From Phytoactinopolyspora halotolerans (lineage in GTDB: Bacteria > Actinomycetota > Actinomycetes > Jiangellales > Jiangellaceae): a DNA stretch of 64,000 bases. Of the stretch, positions 4,145-15,257 are shown piece after piece. The notes under the pieces were generated by a model. That model worked only from the letters and a program-made list of their open reading frames with translations. It searched no databases and had not been told where the DNA came from. Position 1 is the first letter of the stretch. Every line of letters begins with the position of its first letter. The stretch is taken from positions 1-64,000 of the forward strand of contig NZ_JAAGOA010000027.1 of assembly GCF_010550675.1 (NCBI RefSeq), in the 5' to 3' direction. Both the position numbers and the translations under genes were made by a program.

Positions 4145-5560
4145 AGTGCCCCATAGAGTGGTGTAGCGCTGGTGGCCAGCCTCGTCGCGGACGTGGGCGC
4201 GGTCACCGTGTGATCCTTCGAGTCAACCTTCCACAGAATCCTCGAACGGAGTCATCACGATGACCGCACCTCATATTGTCGACCCTGCCGGCCTGCTCGC
4301 GGAAGCCCTGTCCGAGGCGTCGCCGGATCTGATGCGCAGCCTGCTGCAGACCATGATCAACGCGTTGCTGTCCGCGGACGCCGACACGGTCGTTGGCGCG
4401 GAATGGGGCAAGCCCAGCCCTGACCGGACGGCACAGCGCAACGGCTACCGGCACCGCGAGCTGGACACCCGCGTCGGCACCGTCGACGTCGCGATCCGGA
4501 AAGCTGCGCTCGGGCACCTACTTCCCGCAAATGGCTGCTCGAGCGCCGCAAGCGGGCCGAGACCGCGTTGATCACCGTGGTCGCGGACTGCTACCTGGCC
4601 GGCGTCTCGACGCGGCGGATGGACAAGCTCGTCAAGACCCTCGGGATCCACTCCCTGTCCAAGTCGCAGGTATCGCGGATGGCGAGCGAGCTCGACGAGC
4701 ACGTCGAGCAGTTCCGCCACCGGCCCCTGGACGAGTCCGGCCCATTCACATTCGTCGCCGCCGACGCGCTCACGATGAAGGTCCGCGAAGGCGGACGAGT
4801 CATCAACGCCGTCGCCCTCATCGCCACCGGCGTCAACGCCGACGGCCGACGAGAAGTCCTCGGCCTGCGGGTCGCGACCAGCGAGACCGGCACCGCCTGG
4901 AACACCTTCTTCGCCGACCTCACAGCGCGCGGCCTGACCGGGGTGCGCCTGGTCACCAGCGACGCCCCACGCCGGACTCGTCGAGGCGTCGCGGCGAACC
5001 TGCCCGGCGCTGCCTGGCAGCGCTGCCGGACCCACTACGCCGCGAACCTGATGAGCGTGACCCCAAAGAGCATGTGGCCCGCCGTCAAGGCCATGCTGCA
5101 CTCGGTCTACGACCAGCCTGACGCCGAGGCCGTGCACGCCCAGTTCGACCGGCTCCTGGACTACGTCGACGGCAAGCTCCCCGACGCATTCGACCACCTC
5201 GACACCGCCCGCGCCGACATCCTCGCATTCACCGCATTCCCCGACACCCCTGTGGTCACAAATCTGGTCGAACCCCCAACGAGCGCCTCAACCGGGAAAT
5301 CCGCCGCCGCACCGACAGCGTCGGCATCGTCCCCAGCCGCGATGCCATCACCCGCCTCGTCGGCGCCGTCCTCGCCGAACAGACCGACGAATCGGCCGAA
5401 GGACGCCGCTACCTCGGCCTCGACATCCTCACCAAAAGCCGCCTCACCCTCGTCCCCGACACCAGAAACGAAGCGACCACCGAACCCGCCCTCGAACTCA
5501 GCGCCTAACACCCAGATCGAAGGACACCCCGCTACACCACTACCAGGGACTTGACCACGT
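4145..5560 (+). mobile_element. IS256-family insertion sequence, inactive
   Basis: The element is defined by the decayed transposase inside it and by matching ends. GTGGTGTAGCG at 4158-4168 is the exact reverse complement of CGCTACACCAC at 5530-5540, and similarity continues imperfectly outward. Outer limits are approximate, and no clear target-site duplication was found by eye. GC and codon use match the host type. Confidence 0.75.
4260..5508 (+). pseudogene. IS256-family (mutator type) transposase, multiply frameshifted
   Basis: The parts of one transposase are spread over three frames. The N-terminus starts at the ATG at 4260 (residues through V-D-V-A-I). A short K-L-R-S-G-T-Y-F-P piece follows at about 4502, then the long central part from about 4538 to 5245 with L-I-T-V-V-A-D-C-Y-L-A-G-V-S-T-R-R and the DDE-region G-L-R-V-A-T-S. 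W-S-Q-I-W-S-N-P is at about 5254. The C-terminus N-E-R-L-N-R-E-I-R-R-R-T-D ends at the TAA at 5506. That requires at least four frame changes (near 4500, 4535, 5250 and 5275, the last at a run of five C), so no functional protein is expected. Confidence 0.88.
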
Positions 5561-6326
5561 CTGCTGCGCAGGTGATGGAGTTTGAGGATCTCGCATGTCC
5601 GCACGTGGTGTCTGTGGAAGGAGCGAAAAATCCTGCGATGCGCGTCGAAACGGGGGGGAGGTCTCCGTCCATACCGCATCGCTGTGCACGCGCTGACGCT
5701 TCTCATCGCTGCTGACTGAGGATCTGCCGCTACGTTGACACATACAGAGCGTCGATCCAACGTCTCAGCTAGCGTGTTTCCTGTCGCCGTCATGCGACGG
5801 CGGGTACGCCACTGGGCCTCACAGGGGAGACTTTAAATGGATCGCGTCGCGAGATCCAAGCCCGCATCGGGCTCGCGATCCGCAACATCATCAGACAACT
5901 CCGCCCCCTTCGCTCAGCGACCATCGCCATCAAACGGCACCCAACGAACCTTCGACACTCAGATCCCGGACGCGACACAGGCCCTCCTCGGCGCGATCCA
6001 CGACCCAAACTCACGCACTAAGCGCATGAGCCAACGCAAGTGAGAGTCTGACCTGGGATGTCGCCAAGTCGTGGCGGTGCCGCCCAGCCATTGCTCGTTG
6101 AATACGACCTGCTCCGCAGACCGTGAGGCTTGTTCCCCCTGCTCATACAACTAGATCAGAGCAGACGTTCCACATGTGGCCATTGACGGAAGGCGCCCCA
6201 CAGATCCTGACCCTAACTCACACCAGGCCACCCGGCCATGGACGTTCGACCTCTGTGACGAGTCCCAGCGGGTTATGCCCGCCATTCAGGAAAGTCCGCC
6301 TGGGGTGCAAGCCGTGCGCAGGATGA
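5561..6326. other. Stretch without a recognised gene
   Basis: About 770 bases between the IS256 remnant and the low-GC gene pair. A small + frame at 5837-6043 and a - frame at 5959-6150 are open but have no recognisable motif. The tail of the gene pair operon points into this stretch, so a terminator may lie near 6320, but no strong stem-loop stood out. Confidence 0.45.
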
Positions 6327-7538
6327 TCAGTAGCCGGCCTCGAAATGTACGTCGCCCTCAAGCCACATCGCGTTACCCCTACGTGTCAGGGCTCCCGTTG
6401 CTGCGACTGGAAGGCGTTGGCGGTGCGCCCTGATGGCATCATCGTATTTCGTTCCAGCCAGGGAAACTTTGGCTTGGCGTCTCGTTGACTTGCCGATCAC
6501 ACCTCGGATTGTGACCACTCCCTCATCATCGTCGCCATCATCGCGCTCGAGGCGAATAACCTGACCGAATATTGTCTCTGTCGCAGGCGCAAGTTCCCTA
6601 AGCCCCAGCCTCTCCTGTAGGGGCTCAAGATTAGGTATTACGTCTCGATTGATCTCCACGTCTTCCAAGTCTGGCCTCATCGCAGGTTCGCTGGGCGCCC
6701 AAGAAAACGAAAGGTCGAGCGACCTAAGTCCTTCATACTTAGTCATGCGTCGAATAGACTTAACTAAATTCGCACTCAGTCCCTGAAATACCGCGTCATC
6801 CACACTAACTGAGCCTGTCTGCATGGCGGCCTCTCTAGCGGCCTGAACACCCGTTGCAAGTGTCGCCATGACCCTCCGCTGAAAAGGCGGGATGTGAACA
6901 TCCACCTGCGGCTCGGCTTCGTCGGTTTCAACAGCGGCTGACTTTTTTGTCACATCACTCTGACTTCGGTCGTCAGTTTCGGATGTTTCACTGCCAGCGC
7001 TGTCTTGATCGTCAGCTTCTAGGCGTGCCAGGATGGTGATGATAAAGCTTCCGCGTTGTGTGTGCCCCATTCGTACATCATGCTCTATGAAGTCCTTCGC
7101 TGCGTTGGGCCGCTTCCCAGAGTAATGTGAACGCGGACTAATGGTGGACCACGCAGCATAGAGCAACATGTCACTCGCGCCATTTAGTAGATTTTCTGCC
7201 TGCCGCAGTGGAATGCTCCCATCGAGAGAAGTCTGGTCTGCACGGATGTAGAATAGGTCCGAGTTAGTTTGAACAATCCTTGTGGCAAGCTGATGCATAT
7301 CCCAATCATAGATAAGACAAAGGCTCCGTAACGTTTCATTATAACGACGCGCAAAATCAACGTAACCATTATCTAAGGGAACCATCACTCTGGCGGCGAG
7401 CTTTCCTGCCTCGTAGAGTTCCCATATCTGCGCAGCCTTGTCCGCGTTAGATAGTTCCCATCCAGCCGTACCTAAGTAGGACGAAATGGCGCGCGGCGTG
7501 ATCTCCAGGTCATTTGCTACGCTATCGAGCAGATTCAT
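6327..7538 (-). CDS. Uncharacterised protein partnered with a DUF4365 nuclease-like protein
   Basis: A 403-residue soluble protein of unknown function. The N-terminal third is helical with tryptophans and an A-I-S-S-Y-L helix near residue 17. Residues about 177-215 are a low-complexity acidic D/E/S linker. A second globular part (about 216-320) is followed by a predicted beta-rich C-terminus (about 325-403, with alternating V-V-T-I-R-G-V-I-G-K strands) that could be an OB-like barrel; this last point is inference. The ATG overlaps the stop of the upstream gene as ATGA, so the two are translationally coupled and probably function together. The base composition is A/T-rich compared with its flanks, indicating acquisition. 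I do not recognise the family. Confidence 0.75.
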   Translation of the reverse strand: MNLLDSVANDLEITPRAISSYLGTAGWELSNADKAAQIWELYEAGKLAARVMVPLDNGYVDFARRYNETLRSLCLIYDWDMHQLATRIVQTNSDLFYIRADQTSLDGSIPLRQAENLLNGASDMLLYAAWSTISPRSHYSGKRPNAAKDFIEHDVRMGHTQRGSFIITILARLEADDQDSAGSETSETDDRSQSDVTKKSAAVETDEAEPQVDVHIPPFQRRVMATLATGVQAAREAAMQTGSVSVDDAVFQGLSANLVKSIRRMTKYEGLRSLDLSFSWAPSEPAMRPDLEDVEINRDVIPNLEPLQERLGLRELAPATETIFGQVIRLERDDGDDDEGVVTIRGVIGKSTRRQAKVSLAGTKYDDAIRAHRQRLPVAATGALTRRGNAMWLEGDVHFEAGY

Positions 7539-8086
7539 GGCACACCACCGTTCCCTATGCGGGACAGTATACCCAAGAGTTGCTCCACGCTGAATATTTG
7601 GGTCTTTGGTATCCTAATAGTCACACTCGACCTATTTGACGTAGCGGGCTCGCTGCGAAGTGACGTCCAGTATGCACCCTTGTGCAAACGAAGGTGTTCT
7701 TCATCCTGAATTAGCCACTCCCCTAGACCTTCTGGAACCAATAGAACGACCAGAATTGCTGGATTGTACCTTTTAATGCTGCGCAGTTCGTCATAGTACT
7801 TGACTTCAAGTGGATATGAGATATGACCGTCTCGAAGTATGTCTCGCGAAGTGCACTTTAGTTGAATGTCCAGTGGAGTATGGTCGTACACGGCGTGACT
7901 CGCCTTTTGCCTCACCTGAACGTCGACCGTCTCATAATCAACGCGAATGGTTTCAAGTGTGCAGCGTGCGGCGGTCGCAACGGCATGTGCGTAGGCGATA
8001 CTAATCTGTTGCCTACATTCATTTGGATCCAGTGTGCCGTAAGGTAAGCCGCAACTGTGGTCAGTTGGAAATGGCGGTGCCGTCAT
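7535..8086 (-). CDS. DUF4365-domain protein (PD-(D/E)XK-like nuclease fold)
   Basis: A 183-residue protein matching the DUF4365 pattern: an early helix with Y-A-H-A-V-A-T-A-A, then V-D-V-Q-V (D55), P-L-D-I-Q-L-K-C-T (D73, Q75, K77), Y-P-L-E-V-K-Y-Y-D-E-L, V-V-L-L-V-P, and a terminal S-V-T-I-R-I-P. The acidic residue plus Q-x-K arrangement resembles the active site of restriction-endonuclease-like folds. DUF4365 proteins are often found in anti-phage or mobile contexts. It is the first gene of a two-gene unit, overlapping the next gene by four bases. Low GC and a location beside an IS element support horizontal origin. Nuclease activity is inferred, not shown. Confidence 0.82.
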   Translation of the reverse strand: MTAPPFPTDHSCGLPYGTLDPNECRQQISIAYAHAVATAARCTLETIRVDYETVDVQVRQKASHAVYDHTPLDIQLKCTSRDILRDGHISYPLEVKYYDELRSIKRYNPAILVVLLVPEGLGEWLIQDEEHLRLHKGAYWTSLRSEPATSNRSSVTIRIPKTQIFSVEQLLGILSRIGNGGVP

Positions 8087-8847
8087 TTTGCATCCGCCCC
8101 ATGCGCTGCATCGTCACATAGAATGTCGTTCACCCACTACCCCTCTTCCCTCATCGCATCATCCGCCCATAAGCGAGCAACCCCATCGGCTCGCTTGTAC
8201 CCCCGCGTGGCGACACGTTGGGACAAATCTACATTGATCACGGTACCCACGGAAGGGTGAAGGTGTACGTTCGCTGCAGACCAACCCATCCGACCCCAGA
8301 GCTGAGCTTCCCTTCATTGAAGGGAGGTCCTCTGAGCTCCCAGACCGGCGCTGAATCACTCATGCGATCCCGCGCATTGAAGCCGGTTTCACCTGGGCGC
8401 TACGTTGGCTAACGATCATGGGCGCACGTGCCCGCGGGGCTTCCCAGTGTGATCGTCATCTGCGACCAGCGCGATCAGATCAGCGGAGCCACTTGAGGAC
8501 CTGTAGCGGAAAGCGGGGCGCAGGTGTCTGAGCTGTCCGGGCCAACGCTCGACGTTCCGTCCGGTGACCTGCCGACGTGGATAGCGACGACGAGGAGCAG
8601 CAATGATGACGGCCACGCAGGATGTGGTGCGACTCGCACCAGTGACCGTGGCCCGGCTGTCGACGGAGGAAGTCCCCTGGCCGATACGGCGATCCAGAGC
8701 GGCGCGCCGATAAGCACCCGTTGGGTCGCTGAGGCGACCCAGGAGGTCATGGATATTGCACGCTGGCTGGTTCGTCCTAGTCGCGACTGGTCGTGGTCAG
8801 GGCAACCGAGGTCCCTATCATCACGTTCCGGAACAGGGAGGCTCGCC
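8087..8847. other. Upstream region of the DUF4365 pair; no recognised gene
   Basis: About 760 bases between the divergent DUF4365 pair and the small zinc-ribbon gene. It should contain the promoter of the pair. A + frame open from 8524 runs into the zinc-ribbon gene, but its first 108 codons are low-complexity and lack a ribosome site, so I treat them as non-coding. Confidence 0.45.
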
Positions 8848-9189
8848 GTGACGCTGTACATCCACGACCTCGAAGAGGCGTACTGCGCCGCCTGCCCCGA
8901 AAAGGGGAACTCGGCGGCCCGCTGCCGGTGGTGCAACCGCAAGCTGACCGAAGCGGTGAGCATCTGGCTGGGCACCGGGTCGACGTGCTTGCACGGTGAC
9001 GAGAGGTCTCAGGCCCGCCTTCTCGACAGTGCGCAAGTCACAGGGCTGGGTCACGTTCAGCCCGCTGCCGCCAACGAGTGCGGATCAGATGCAGGACAGC
9101 ATCGCCGGCTGCCCGGCGTCGAGTTGCACGTCCGCACCGACAACGATGGTGACCTGAAGATCTGGATCAGGATCGTGTCCGACGAGTAA
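8848..9189 (+). CDS. Small zinc-ribbon protein, unknown function
   Basis: A 113-residue protein with C-A-A-C near residue 13 and C-R-W-C near residue 25, a four-cysteine zinc-ribbon-like knuckle, followed by a basic/polar middle and a strand-rich C-terminus (D-N-D-G-D-L-K-I-W-I-R-I-V). The GTG at 8848 is chosen because AGGGAGG lies at 8835-8841, six bases upstream. A start at 8524 would add a low-complexity N-terminus. The gene precedes another unknown gene on the same strand. Such small zinc-knuckle proteins are common in actinobacterial mobile DNA. No function is claimed. Confidence 0.55.
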   Translation: MTLYIHDLEEAYCAACPEKGNSAARCRWCNRKLTEAVSIWLGTGSTCLHGDERSQARLLDSAQVTGLGHVQPAAANECGSDAGQHRRLPGVELHVRTDNDGDLKIWIRIVSDE

Positions 9190-9301
9190 CCCGAAGCCGC
9201 GCGCGGGTGCTGAGGCCGGTCGCAGATGGGACGGGCCTCATTACGTTTGCCCGGGCGCACGTTGCACCCCATGTGTCCGCCCCTGGCAGTACTGTCCGCG
9301 T

Positions 9302-9916
9302 ATGGGGAGCGAGAAGAAGACACCATCGCGACTGCCGCATACTGAGGGCCAGCTTGCGCGCGCCGAGCGCGTGCTCAAAGCGCAGCGACACCGGTCGACC
9401 GTCGGACCCGACTTCGCCGACTACGCGCCGTACGTCCTCGACTGCGCTGCGCACATCGGCCGCGTGTTCAAGATCGAGACGGGACCAACGCGTGGAGCGA
9501 ACAACGCCTTCTCGGTGTGGTGGCACGACCTCCTGCAAGATGACGAGTTTGACTGGCTCCGCCAGTACCGCGACACCGAGCTCAAGGACGTGAAGCGGAT
9601 CACGCGGATCCTGACGACGATCCGGACACAGGACGGCGGAATCCTGCAGGTCCACGACGTGGGTCTATCAGTGACCAAGCCCGACGGCACGACCAAGACC
9701 TCGCGAGCGAAGGATGTCAACAAGCTGCCGCCAGGTGGAACTGCCGAGTACATCATCCGCATCGGGCCGTGGGCGGACCAGGAGTTCACGGCGGCCATAG
9801 GCGGGTTCTTGACCCGGTGGCGGGACGTGCTGTTGCCCGCCGCCCTGGAGTTCGTGCGGCAGACGTCAGAGGCACCGCCAAGGCAGGGCCTGGCGATGGA
9901 AGACGGCCCGTTCTGA
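9302..9916 (+). CDS. Hypothetical protein
   Basis: A 204-residue soluble protein, basic at the N-terminus (M-G-S-E-K-K-T) and helix-rich, with a conserved-looking central W-W-H-D-L-L segment (about residue 64) and a C-terminal hydrophobic helix region (F-T-A-A-I-G-G-F-L-T-R-W). No family recognised. No Shine-Dalgarno sequence is visible before the ATG, so it may be leaderless. It follows the zinc-ribbon gene by 112 bases in the same direction. Codon use is typical of the high-GC host, which supports it being a real gene. Confidence 0.6.
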   Translation: MGSEKKTPSRLPHTEGQLARAERVLKAQRHRSTVGPDFADYAPYVLDCAAHIGRVFKIETGPTRGANNAFSVWWHDLLQDDEFDWLRQYRDTELKDVKRITRILTTIRTQDGGILQVHDVGLSVTKPDGTTKTSRAKDVNKLPPGGTAEYIIRIGPWADQEFTAAIGGFLTRWRDVLLPAALEFVRQTSEAPPRQGLAMEDGPF

Positions 9917-10541
9917 CCGCGCGGGCTTCCTTCAGTCTGGCGACCCGGCTTGGGGGCGGCCCGCAGCCAGTGCGGCACACTGGCGAAAGCGTCGCGGGCA
10001 GTCACCGGAAACACGCCTTCGCTAACACCCGCGACTTGGCGTCGAACTGCGTCGAGACGTTCAGGGAACGCCCGAGTCTGCGCCACCAGGATGGGGACCT
10101 CGTCACGTCATTGAGGAGCCAGGTCCGGATCGGGCGAACGTCGTCACACTTGCGGCGGCCGCCTGGCGGGTGTGAGAGCGGCCCGAGATGCTGCTCGCGT
10201 TCTGGTATAGCTGGCGCTGCCGGTCGGTTTCGACGTCATTGCCAGCTACACCGGAAAGAAGTGGATGCCCGGTTCCGGATCGATCCTCTTCGGCATGACA
10301 CTCATCCTTCCAGCACAGAAAGATGCGGCATCAAACCTGGGGCGCTTCAACCCCGGTCGCTGGAAACGACCGGCAGGGTAGGGCACGATGAGCCATGATG
10401 TCGAAACCGGCCTTGAACGCGTTCGACGGCCGCATCAAACCAGCCGGTAACCAACCATCACCGAGACTGAACCCCTCTGGTACCCCATTCTGGCCCAAGT
10501 CGCGTCTTATGCCGCGTACTCCCCTGTTCGGGCCTCATCCG
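9917..10541. other. Intergenic stretch without a recognised gene
   Basis: About 625 bases between the hypothetical gene and the end of the rhamnosidase gene (convergent). Frames at 9769-10398 and 10395-10943 are open but look like shadows with no motifs. Nothing else was seen. Confidence 0.45.
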
Positions 10542-13973: not shown

Positions 13974-15257
13974 ATGAAGGTCTTGATGATCACTACGGGA
14001 AGTCGAGGTGATGTCCAGCCATTCATAGCGCTTGCGAAAGCACTTGAGAAGCACGGACACTCGACCATATTGGCCGCATCTGCTTCGTCTCAACCGCTCT
14101 CGCGCGAACATGGTCTTTCCATTCACCCATTGGATGATGGCATCATGAACATAATAACCGAGCGCAAGGCACCGCCCTTCGAAAATAACATACTAGCCAA
14201 GGCGAGAGCGTCGGTTCGGTTGATTCAATACTATTCAAGGCAAGTTAGTCAGGTATTAGAGGGTATTGAGAACGCCGCCGAACCCGGCATAGACGCGGTC
14301 GTCTATAGAGCCGATACGCCGGGCGGATTTGATATTGCGGAGTGGCTCGGAATACGTCCCATTCAAGTTTGCATCTGCCCAACCCGAGTTCCGACGCGAT
14401 CATTTCCCGACCCTCTCTTTCCGTATCGAATTCCGAAGCGCTTTAATCGCCTCTCATACACACTCTCACACATGACTTCTAGCAGAATTCTATTCGAAAT
14501 ATTGAATCGGCGTGCAGTTTCCAAGTGGCGCCGGAAACGGCTTTCGTTTCCGCGACGACCATTCCATGGCAGCCATTCTAGTAGAACCGCCGGGACGCGG
14601 ATAACTACTTTGCAGGCTCTCAGTTCCTGCATAATGCCCCCGCCCCGTGATTACCCGCCTTGGGTTCACGCAACGGGTTTTTGGGTGGCCGGAGTTCCAT
14701 CTTCTTGGCAGCCATCAGAAGAGCTCTTAGACTTTCTGGCCAACGGTGAGGACGCACCCATTTACATCGGATTTGGCAGTATGGTCGGCACTGACCCAGA
14801 GGGCACGACAAGAGCTATACTCAAGGCCATTGGTACACTGAACATTCGTGCAATACTGACCGTCGGTTGGGGTGGAATAAGACGTACAGAACAAACTGAT
14901 AATCGAATACTATTTGTTGACGATGTACCTCTGGAATGGCTATTTCCTCGAGTTAGGCTGGCTGCTCATCACGGAGGTGTCGGAACCGTAAGCGCGGCGC
15001 TACGGGCAGGCATCCCTCAAGTAGTAATGCCCTTCATTGAAGACCAGTTCTTTTATGCTCGACGCCTGCATGATTTAGGAGTCGCGCCAGACCCGTTACC
15101 CCAGCATGCATTAACCCCTCAGAAGCTTGCGAAAGTCGTACGAGAGGCACTAGAAGACAATTCTATCTTCATGCACGCTGAAAGGCTGCGCCGACATGTT
15201 CAAGCAGAAGAGGGTGCCGATGGGGCAGTGAGAATAATTGAATCAATTATTAACTAG
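13974..15257 (+). CDS. GT1-type glycosyltransferase (UDP-glycosyltransferase, GT-B fold), low-GC copy
   Basis: A 427-residue GT-B glycosyltransferase of the sterol-/macrolide-glucosyltransferase type, transferring a sugar from a nucleotide sugar to a small acceptor. The N-terminus is M-K-V-L-M-I-T-T-G-S-R-G-D-V-Q-P-F, the hallmark of this subfamily. The donor-binding motif H-H-G-G-V-G-T-V-S-A-A-L-R-A-G-I-P is at about residues 333-349, followed by E-D-Q-F-F-Y-A-R-R. Two closely related genes lie at 35.2 and 37.4 kb, but this one is markedly more A/T-rich, so it is not a recent duplicate of them. It ends 8 bases inside the convergent ABC ATPase gene. Confidence 0.9.
   Translation: MKVLMITTGSRGDVQPFIALAKALEKHGHSTILAASASSQPLSREHGLSIHPLDDGIMNIITERKAPPFENNILAKARASVRLIQYYSRQVSQVLEGIENAAEPGIDAVVYRADTPGGFDIAEWLGIRPIQVCICPTRVPTRSFPDPLFPYRIPKRFNRLSYTLSHMTSSRILFEILNRRAVSKWRRKRLSFPRRPFHGSHSSRTAGTRITTLQALSSCIMPPPRDYPPWVHATGFWVAGVPSSWQPSEELLDFLANGEDAPIYIGFGSMVGTDPEGTTRAILKAIGTLNIRAILTVGWGGIRRTEQTDNRILFVDDVPLEWLFPRVRLAAHHGGVGTVSAALRAGIPQVVMPFIEDQFFYARRLHDLGVAPDPLPQHALTPQKLAKVVREALEDNSIFMHAERLRRHVQAEEGADGAVRIIESIIN

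What the first reader, a model, noticed from the sequence alone, without database searches (positions are those of the whole stretch)
6327..8086. Low-GC overlapping gene pair: DUF4365 nuclease-like protein plus unknown 403-residue partner
The two genes overlap by four bases (ATGA). The first has the D55 / D73-x-Q75-x-K77 layout of a PD-(D/E)XK-like DUF4365 protein; the second is unrecognised, with an acidic linker and a beta-rich C-terminus. The pair is A/T-rich against its flanks and sits beside a dead IS256, as expected for an acquired defence cassette. I know of no named system with this composition.
Basis: partly seen in the sequence, partly recalled or inferred. Interest (0 to 1): 0.65.

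Follow-up and report, generated by a model that had tools for sequence, protein, structure and literature searches.

The report
PDC-M02 nuclease plus OB-fold partner pair
This is a horizontally acquired two-gene cassette, a DNA-cutting enzyme of the kind used by an Argonaute defence system plus a partner protein that probably senses nucleic acid; it belongs to an already catalogued but, as far as found here, untested anti-virus candidate called PDC-M02.

Summary
The two overlapping genes are real. Gene A (7535-8086, minus) is a DUF4365 protein. Its predicted fold matches the DREN nuclease of SPARDA short-Argonaute systems best (Z 13.4); D55, Q75 and K77 are invariant in the 51 sequences aligned and correspond to SPARDA's catalytic D41, Q60, K62. 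Gene B (6327-7538, minus) has no Pfam family; AlphaFold gives alpha/beta regions, a disordered acidic linker and a C-terminal OB fold. The pair is not unnamed: PADLOC-DB lists both as candidate system PDC-M02. The genes are a unit: an A match lies before B in 82 of 85 loci found by B, and B follows A in 50 of 50 loci examined of 57 found by A. The pair is AT-rich and unmatched in the 21 other genomes of its order; relatives lie near Druantia and restriction genes. Unexpectedly, a diverged copy is widespread in Streptomyces just before thrS. Most likely a sensor-effector defence: B detects nucleic acid and licenses nuclease A. Trigger and defence are inferred.

The parts
7535..8086 (-). Gene A, 183 aa: DUF4365 / DREN-type PD-(D/E)XK nuclease (PDC-M02A); catalytic candidates D55, Q75, K77
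   Evidence: Pfam E 2.4e-19; PADLOC E 5.1e-57; fold Z 13.4 to SPARDA 9qbq_C; D50, D55, Q75, K77 identical in 51 of 51 aligned sequences
6327..7538 (-). Gene B, 403 aa: PDC-M02B partner; N-terminal alpha/beta region about 1-172, acidic disordered linker about 176-214, middle alpha/beta region about 217-316, C-terminal OB fold about 318-403
   Evidence: PADLOC E 2.4e-127; AlphaFold mean pLDDT 88.7; OB-fold matches, best Z 8-10, for residues 314-403
7535..7538 (-). ATGA overlap joining A and B
   Evidence: with my choice of start codons, 62 of 82 related pairs have the same 4-base overlap
4227..5621 (+). Interrupted IS256-family element beside the pair (context, not part of the system)
   Evidence: Transposase_mut in two frames; inverted ends 4227-4250 and 5598-5621, 79% complementary; 79% identical stretch in the same genome

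Best explanation
A mobile two-gene sensor-effector cassette of the PDC-M02 candidate family. Gene A is a stand-alone DREN-type PD-(D/E)XK nuclease. Gene B is a multi-domain control protein whose OB fold binds a nucleic acid, most likely single-stranded DNA or another exposed intermediate of phage replication. The two are made together from overlapping genes and probably form a complex. B keeps A idle until it meets its trigger, then lets A assemble and cut DNA (possibly also RNA), destroying the invader or shutting down the infected cell. Shown by computation: nuclease fold and catalytic residues, OB fold, obligate pairing, shared evolutionary history, signs of horizontal acquisition. Inferred: complex formation, trigger, activation by assembly, and phage defence.
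For: Nuclease: Pfam DUF4365; DREN fold Z 13.4, 138 residues, rmsd 3.5 to SPARDA; invariant D55/Q75/K77 corresponding to the DREN residues D41/Q60/K62 whose mutation abolishes or impairs activity (PMC12205087 passages). OB fold: best rows SilF Z 10.0, then SSB and PriB Z 8-9 on residues 314-403; one of 61 relatives gives a weak Pfam tRNA_anti-codon OB match, E 0.023. Unit: 82 of 85, 50 of 50 examined, 4-base overlap in 62 of 82, distance-matrix correlation 0.90 against a best of 0.21 in 1000 permutations. Mobility: lower G+C than flanks in 80 of 81 loci, on plasmid and prophage records, no match in 21 of 22 genomes of the order. Defence context: Druantia, Type I REase, MTase_II and HerA families matched near relatives and not among the 25 of 47 families shown for controls. 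Catalogued defence candidate.
Against: No experiment. OB-fold Z 8-10 is modest, the tool warns that Z under 8 may mean only a common arrangement, and OB folds also bind protein or metal (SilF is listed first). The fold of residues 1-316 was barely tested. No defence gene was recognised by Pfam in this window's own flanks. A diverged form is widespread in Streptomyces next to thrS. Much of the Actinomycetota tree groups by family, so not every copy looks recently mobile. Two other PADLOC PDC candidates, PDC-M63AB and PDC-S04, showed no defence when tested (PMC12409345 passages).
Confidence: 0.5

Rival explanations
1. Toxin-antitoxin or addiction pair: A is a toxic nuclease neutralised by direct binding of B, and the pair is kept for its own persistence or acts by abortive infection when B is lost.
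For: Two overlapping genes, mobile, A never seen without at least part of B in the 50 loci examined. Several loci keep B while A is interrupted or gone.
Against: B is large and multi-domain with an OB fold, unlike a simple antitoxin. Two of 50 loci keep an apparently intact A with an incomplete B (L146 and L148).
Confidence: 0.2
2. A restriction-like system that reads the invader's DNA directly: B recognises a DNA structure or modification and A cuts at or near it, like a type IV restriction enzyme.
For: PD-(D/E)XK fold; methyltransferase, Type I REase and HerA families among neighbours of relatives.
Against: No gene besides A and B recurred in the neighbour family tallies (at most 5 of 122 ORFs for any Pfam family; at most 4 for any PADLOC family); closest fold is DREN, used for collateral cutting, with restriction enzymes scoring far lower (DpnI Z 5.9).
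Confidence: 0.15
3. A housekeeping nucleic-acid processing pair that is sometimes mobile, the thrS-linked Streptomyces form being the ancestral role (for example RNA or stress-related processing).
For: A of this kind matches in 67 of 81 genomes of one genus taken to be Streptomyces, at E 1e-20 or better; A, B and thrS lie together in 5 of 5 named Streptomycetaceae stretches fetched; a thrS start motif lies 89-250 bp downstream in 32 of 41 partly redundant extracts; dN/dS medians 0.14 and 0.26.
Against: The window's form is patchy, AT-rich and plasmid or prophage borne elsewhere; relatives sit by defence genes.
Confidence: 0.12

Closest known systems
PADLOC-DB candidate system PDC-M02 (A and B)
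   Same: Both proteins match its models at E 5e-57 and 2e-127 over nearly full length
   Different: Nothing found that excludes membership; PDC-x are described as unpublished candidates (PMC11811056 passages) and no main text in the library names PDC-M02 (supplements not searched)
SPARDA (short prokaryotic Argonaute with DREN/DUF4365-APAZ)
   Same: Nuclease fold and D/Q/K active site
   Different: A is 183 aa with no room for an APAZ domain; B was not recognised as an Argonaute, though its N-terminal part was barely tested by fold
Streptomyces thrS-linked DUF4365 pair
   Same: Both genes homologous, adjacent, D and QxK kept; the copy scanned matches PDC-M02 models
   Different: Widespread in Streptomyces and placed before thrS; in the sequences read B lacks the GHTxxGSF motif
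DUF6575 proteins
   Same: Foldseek match of B to a phage protein named DUF6575, E 3.2e-6; a DUF6575 protein is in a tested E. coli defence set (PMC9519451 passages)
   Different: TM-score only 0.29, rmsd 15.6; no sequence match; relation unproven

Membership tests
PDC-M02 | First gene matches PDC-M02A models | tested here: met
   E 5.1e-57, residues 10-182 of 182
PDC-M02 | Second gene matches PDC-M02B models | tested here: met
   E 2.4e-127, residues 10-400 of 403
PDC-M02 | The two genes adjacent on one strand (PADLOC's own system rule was not on hand; adjacency is my reading of it) | tested here: met
   4-base overlap
PDC-M02 | Shown to protect against phage | not testable with these tools
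   No main text in the library names PDC-M02
SPARDA | DREN/DUF4365 nuclease with D-QxK active site | tested here: met
   Z 13.4; D55, Q75, K77 in 51 of 51
SPARDA | Nuclease fused to an APAZ domain | tested here: not met
   The DUF4365 match fills 26-174 of 182 residues; the matched SPARDA chains have 387-423 residues
SPARDA | Partner is a short Argonaute (MID-PIWI) | tested here: inconclusive
   No Pfam, NCBIfam or PDB sequence match; fold search dominated by the OB domain
OB-fold nucleic-acid-binding proteins | C-terminal domain has an OB fold | tested here: met
   In a predicted model: SSB, PriB, telomere-protein and tRNA-synthetase OB domains at Z 7-9 over about 70-90 residues
OB-fold nucleic-acid-binding proteins | Binds nucleic acid | not testable with these tools
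   Needs binding assays
Toxin-antitoxin system | A toxic alone and neutralised by B | not testable with these tools
   Needs expression assays

The most novel reading that the evidence does not exclude
PDC-M02 is an Argonaute-free route to switching on the DREN nuclease: the same effector module that SPARDA couples to an RNA-guided Argonaute is here coupled to an OB-fold protein that senses exposed single strands or tRNA-like RNA without a guide, and Streptomyces has adopted one such pair as a long-kept immune or RNA-surveillance locus beside thrS.
Probability: 0.25. Interest if true: 0.65.

Novelty: new member of a known kind. Interest (0 to 1): 0.42.

Why it matters
PDC-M02 is catalogued but, as far as the papers searched here go, unexplained. 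Linking its first gene to a nuclease with solved structures and its second to an OB fold turns an anonymous candidate into a testable sensor-effector model. It also suggests that DREN is a portable effector used with very different sensors. The thrS-linked Streptomyces copy matters in practice, because PADLOC PDC-M02 models match it strongly (one copy scanned), so routine scans may count a common chromosomal locus as a defence system; and biologically, because it may be a retained immune or RNA-processing pair in a heavily studied genus.

Tried and rejected
SPARDA membership: rejected because A has no room for APAZ. A housekeeping identity for B: no Pfam, NCBIfam or PDB sequence match supports it; the TerL_nuclease match (E 0.13) was treated as chance. 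An internal repeat in B (residues 55-176 against 212-318) was tested by hhalign and not found. Scans with the single B sequence found no relatives in genome contigs or viral contigs; the alignment scans did. Scanning 61 B sequences against Pfam gave scattered weak matches, at most 3 members for any family, the best YbjN E 0.00044 in one member whose identity I did not trace. DUF6575 could not be compared by profile: no member was found in 198 genomes or in the control genomes, and an attempt to centre the search elsewhere failed. The viral fold search gave, besides phage LE1, a 270-residue phage protein (E 1.4e-6), DUF6575 (E 3.2e-6) and a 101-residue Nodularia phage protein (E 4e-4); none was followed. 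An idea that broken-A loci outnumber broken-B loci, as a toxin-antitoxin model would predict, was not supported: about 8 of 85 against 2 of 50, with different ascertainment. The tally lists 10 of 85 with incomplete A: L072 is at a contig edge, L053 and L064 are partial matches; L031, read as frame-shifted, is not in that list. The 8 apparent A losses in the second set are a distance artefact of my script, since A is present there. A sigma-70 promoter scan found none.

The invariance of G158, T160 and G163-S164-F165 in B is partly built in, because the search pattern used that motif; the invariance of W27, P54, D94, A129 and G382 (61 of 61) is not.

Full report
Observation. Both ORFs are present as described, on the minus strand and joined by a 4-base ATGA overlap. 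The pair is 52.4% G+C against 63.1% for the window; 1.6% of overlapping windows of equal length, the pair's own included, are as low. Next to it lies an IS256-family element whose Transposase_mut matches fall in two frames, with 24-nt imperfect inverted ends and a 79% identical stretch elsewhere in the genome.

Gene A. Pfam assigns DUF4365 (E 2.4e-19). AlphaFold on 51 sequences gave mean pLDDT 90.2. The best structural matches, the top six rows, are chains of SPARDA complexes (Z 13.4 to 10.2), aligned over their first 150 residues or so, which is where the DREN nuclease lies; Holliday-junction resolvases follow at Z about 9 and DpnI at 5.9. D50, D55, Q75 and K77 are identical in 51 of 51 sequences; position 73 is D or E in 47. 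The 51 are the window and 50 of the 82 loci with an A match. In NbaSPARDA the catalytic residues are D41, Q60 and K62; D41A and Q60A abolish and K62A impairs collateral activity (PMC12205087, passages). In TmuRE-Ago the proposed equivalents are Q62 and K64 (PMC10810196, passages). A is therefore very likely an active nuclease of this type; the activity itself is inferred.

Gene B. No family in Pfam or NCBIfam, and no PDB relative by sequence, passes a meaningful threshold. AlphaFold on 61 sequences gave mean pLDDT 88.7, with low-confidence runs within 179-205. The C-terminal residues 314-403 match OB folds: SilF Z 10.0, SSB and PriB Z 8 to 9, several tRNA-synthetase OB domains Z 7 to 8; one relative gives a weak Pfam OB match (E 0.023). 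Foldseek found no PDB match at E 0.001 or better. The N-terminal three quarters remain of unknown fold; the tool itself warns that they were barely tested.

Known status. PADLOC-DB matches A to PDC-M02A (E 5.1e-57) and B to PDC-M02B (E 2.4e-127), the best of many models of the same names. PDC-x are described as unpublished candidates from Payne et al. 2021 (PMC11811056, passages). No main text in the library names PDC-M02 (supplements were not searched). Of the ten papers that mention DUF4365 I saw two as passages and the rest as listing only; none concerns this pair by title. Two other PDC candidates, PDC-M63AB and PDC-S04, showed no activity in one native-host test (PMC12409345, passages).

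Pairing. Searching genome contigs with an alignment of B alone gave 199 relatives, of which the best 80 were kept, and viral contigs gave 5. A DUF4365 match lies just upstream in 82 of these 85. The exceptions are L072 (contig edge), L069 (none seen) and L097 (only end fragments, read by eye). With my choice of start codons the overlap is 4 bases in 62 of 82. L031, L056, L073 and L081 read as interrupted in A, and L040 and L093 as well by coverage. On plasmid and phage records, 13 loci were fetched from 18 records (several are duplicates); 11 of 13 have an A match. L017 has a transposase-like frame there, and L024 a DUF4365-like frame read by eye. In the other direction, a profile of A found 5 places in 4 of 385 genomes of the class of G515, itself already a known carrier, and 52 places in 47 of 393 genomes of the window's class. 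I examined 50 of these 57 places, the window's own included, and all 50 have a B match on the same strand; it is incomplete in two. Of the 50, 23 are of the thrS-linked kind described below. The A and B distance matrices of 51 loci correlate at 0.90; the best of 1000 permutations reached 0.21. The two genes are one unit.

Spread. In the B tree 38 Actinomycetota rows form one group, with Pseudomonadota, Chloroflexota, Planctomycetota, Myxococcota, Gemmatimonadota and Binatota rows outside; within Actinomycetota many rows group by family, so part of the history looks old or local rather than freshly mobile. The window's closest relatives in B are Pseudofrankia and Amycolatopsis at 42-46% identity. 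B has no match in the other 21 genomes of the order. Records include 14 plasmids, two Mycobacterium abscessus prophage records and two of Leptospira phage LE1. Pair G+C is below the flanks in 80 of 81 loci with enough flank, by 6.6 points on average; amino-acid composition may explain part of this.

Neighbourhood. From 21 relatives with handles I took 20, with one control stretch each from the same contig. I gene-called both sets with a simple script keeping up to seven longest ORFs each, and dropped L039 and L083 and their controls to fit the size limit. The 122 neighbouring ORFs of 18 loci matched 192 PADLOC families at E 1e-10, of which 25 are shown, including DruA and DruE (2 members each), Type I REase (2), MTase_II (3), HerA (3), PD-Lambda-5_B (3), mad2 (4) and kinase-type PD-T4-6 (2). 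The 126 control ORFs matched 47 families, of which 25 are shown: mad2 (2), and PD-T4-6, mad6, PDC-M37B, DolB and a kinase with one member each. Family counts are not gene counts, and the output does not say in which locus each match lies, so this is supportive, not a formal enrichment. Single annotated cases agree: cas3 (L014), DUF262 and Abi genes (L018), and a specificity-subunit-like frame read by eye before L097.

The Streptomyces copy. A B model matched 9 of 396 phylum genomes at E 1e-10: the window's own and eight of one unnamed genus, there only over the C-terminal half. With the family-wide profile both halves of B, and A, are seen in 17 of 18 extracts (A missing in L011). I take the genus to be Streptomyces: four of five named Streptomyces genomes and one named Kitasatospora genome that carry the window's type also have a second match of this kind, and in 5 of 5 of those places A (71-86% identical), B (53-80%) and thrS (80-92%) lie together, with A up to 93% identical to the unnamed extracts. 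A of this kind matches in 67 of 81 genomes of the genus at E 1e-20, a few of them split or with a stop inside. In the unnamed extracts a thrS start motif lies 89-250 bp after B in 32 of 41, many of them overlapping extracts of the same genome; one was scanned and is thrS by NCBIfam (E 1.7e-112; 377.2 bits, just under the cut-off of 383.65, the gene being cut). D and QxK are kept in all 17 A sequences read; median dN/dS is 0.14 for A and 0.26 for B. The copy scanned matches PDC-M02 models strongly, B at E 4e-176.

Mechanism and verdict. I think this is a sensor-effector cassette: B binds a nucleic acid through its OB fold and licenses the DREN-type nuclease A. The effector identity, the obligate pairing and the foreign origin are well supported and the OB fold is fairly supported; the trigger, the complex and phage defence are inference. 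The finding is a good and largely correct observation, but of a catalogued kind. What this work adds is the DREN assignment with an Argonaute-free partner and the thrS-linked Streptomyces form.

Noticed in passing
L004-L011, L110-L119, L158-L178, L192-L198: Diverged DUF4365 plus partner pair upstream of thrS: A matches in 67 of 81 genomes of a genus taken to be Streptomyces; A, B and thrS together in 5 of 5 named Streptomycetaceae stretches; PADLOC PDC-M02 models match the copy scanned.
   Followed up: partly
window 13974-15257: A glycosyltransferase gene with 51% G+C and GC3 48%, a second AT-rich, probably acquired segment near the pair.
   Followed up: no
window 8524-9916: Two ORFs, one with a borderline DUF6011 match (26.2 bits, cut-off 26.6), the other without a Pfam match at E 0.01; perhaps remnants of an element.
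   Followed up: no
window about 10274-10467: Short stretch with copies of about 73-90% identity scattered in several genomes of the family, five of them in G011; looks like a dispersed repeat.
   Followed up: no
L097, upstream of the partner: A specificity-subunit-like frame followed by what look like only the ends of the DUF4365 gene: an apparent internal deletion of the nuclease with the partner kept (read by eye).
   Followed up: no
L055, L076: Very large ORFs (about 1855-1866 aa) ending just before the pair, probably the DruE matches, suggesting PDC-M02 beside Druantia.
   Followed up: partly
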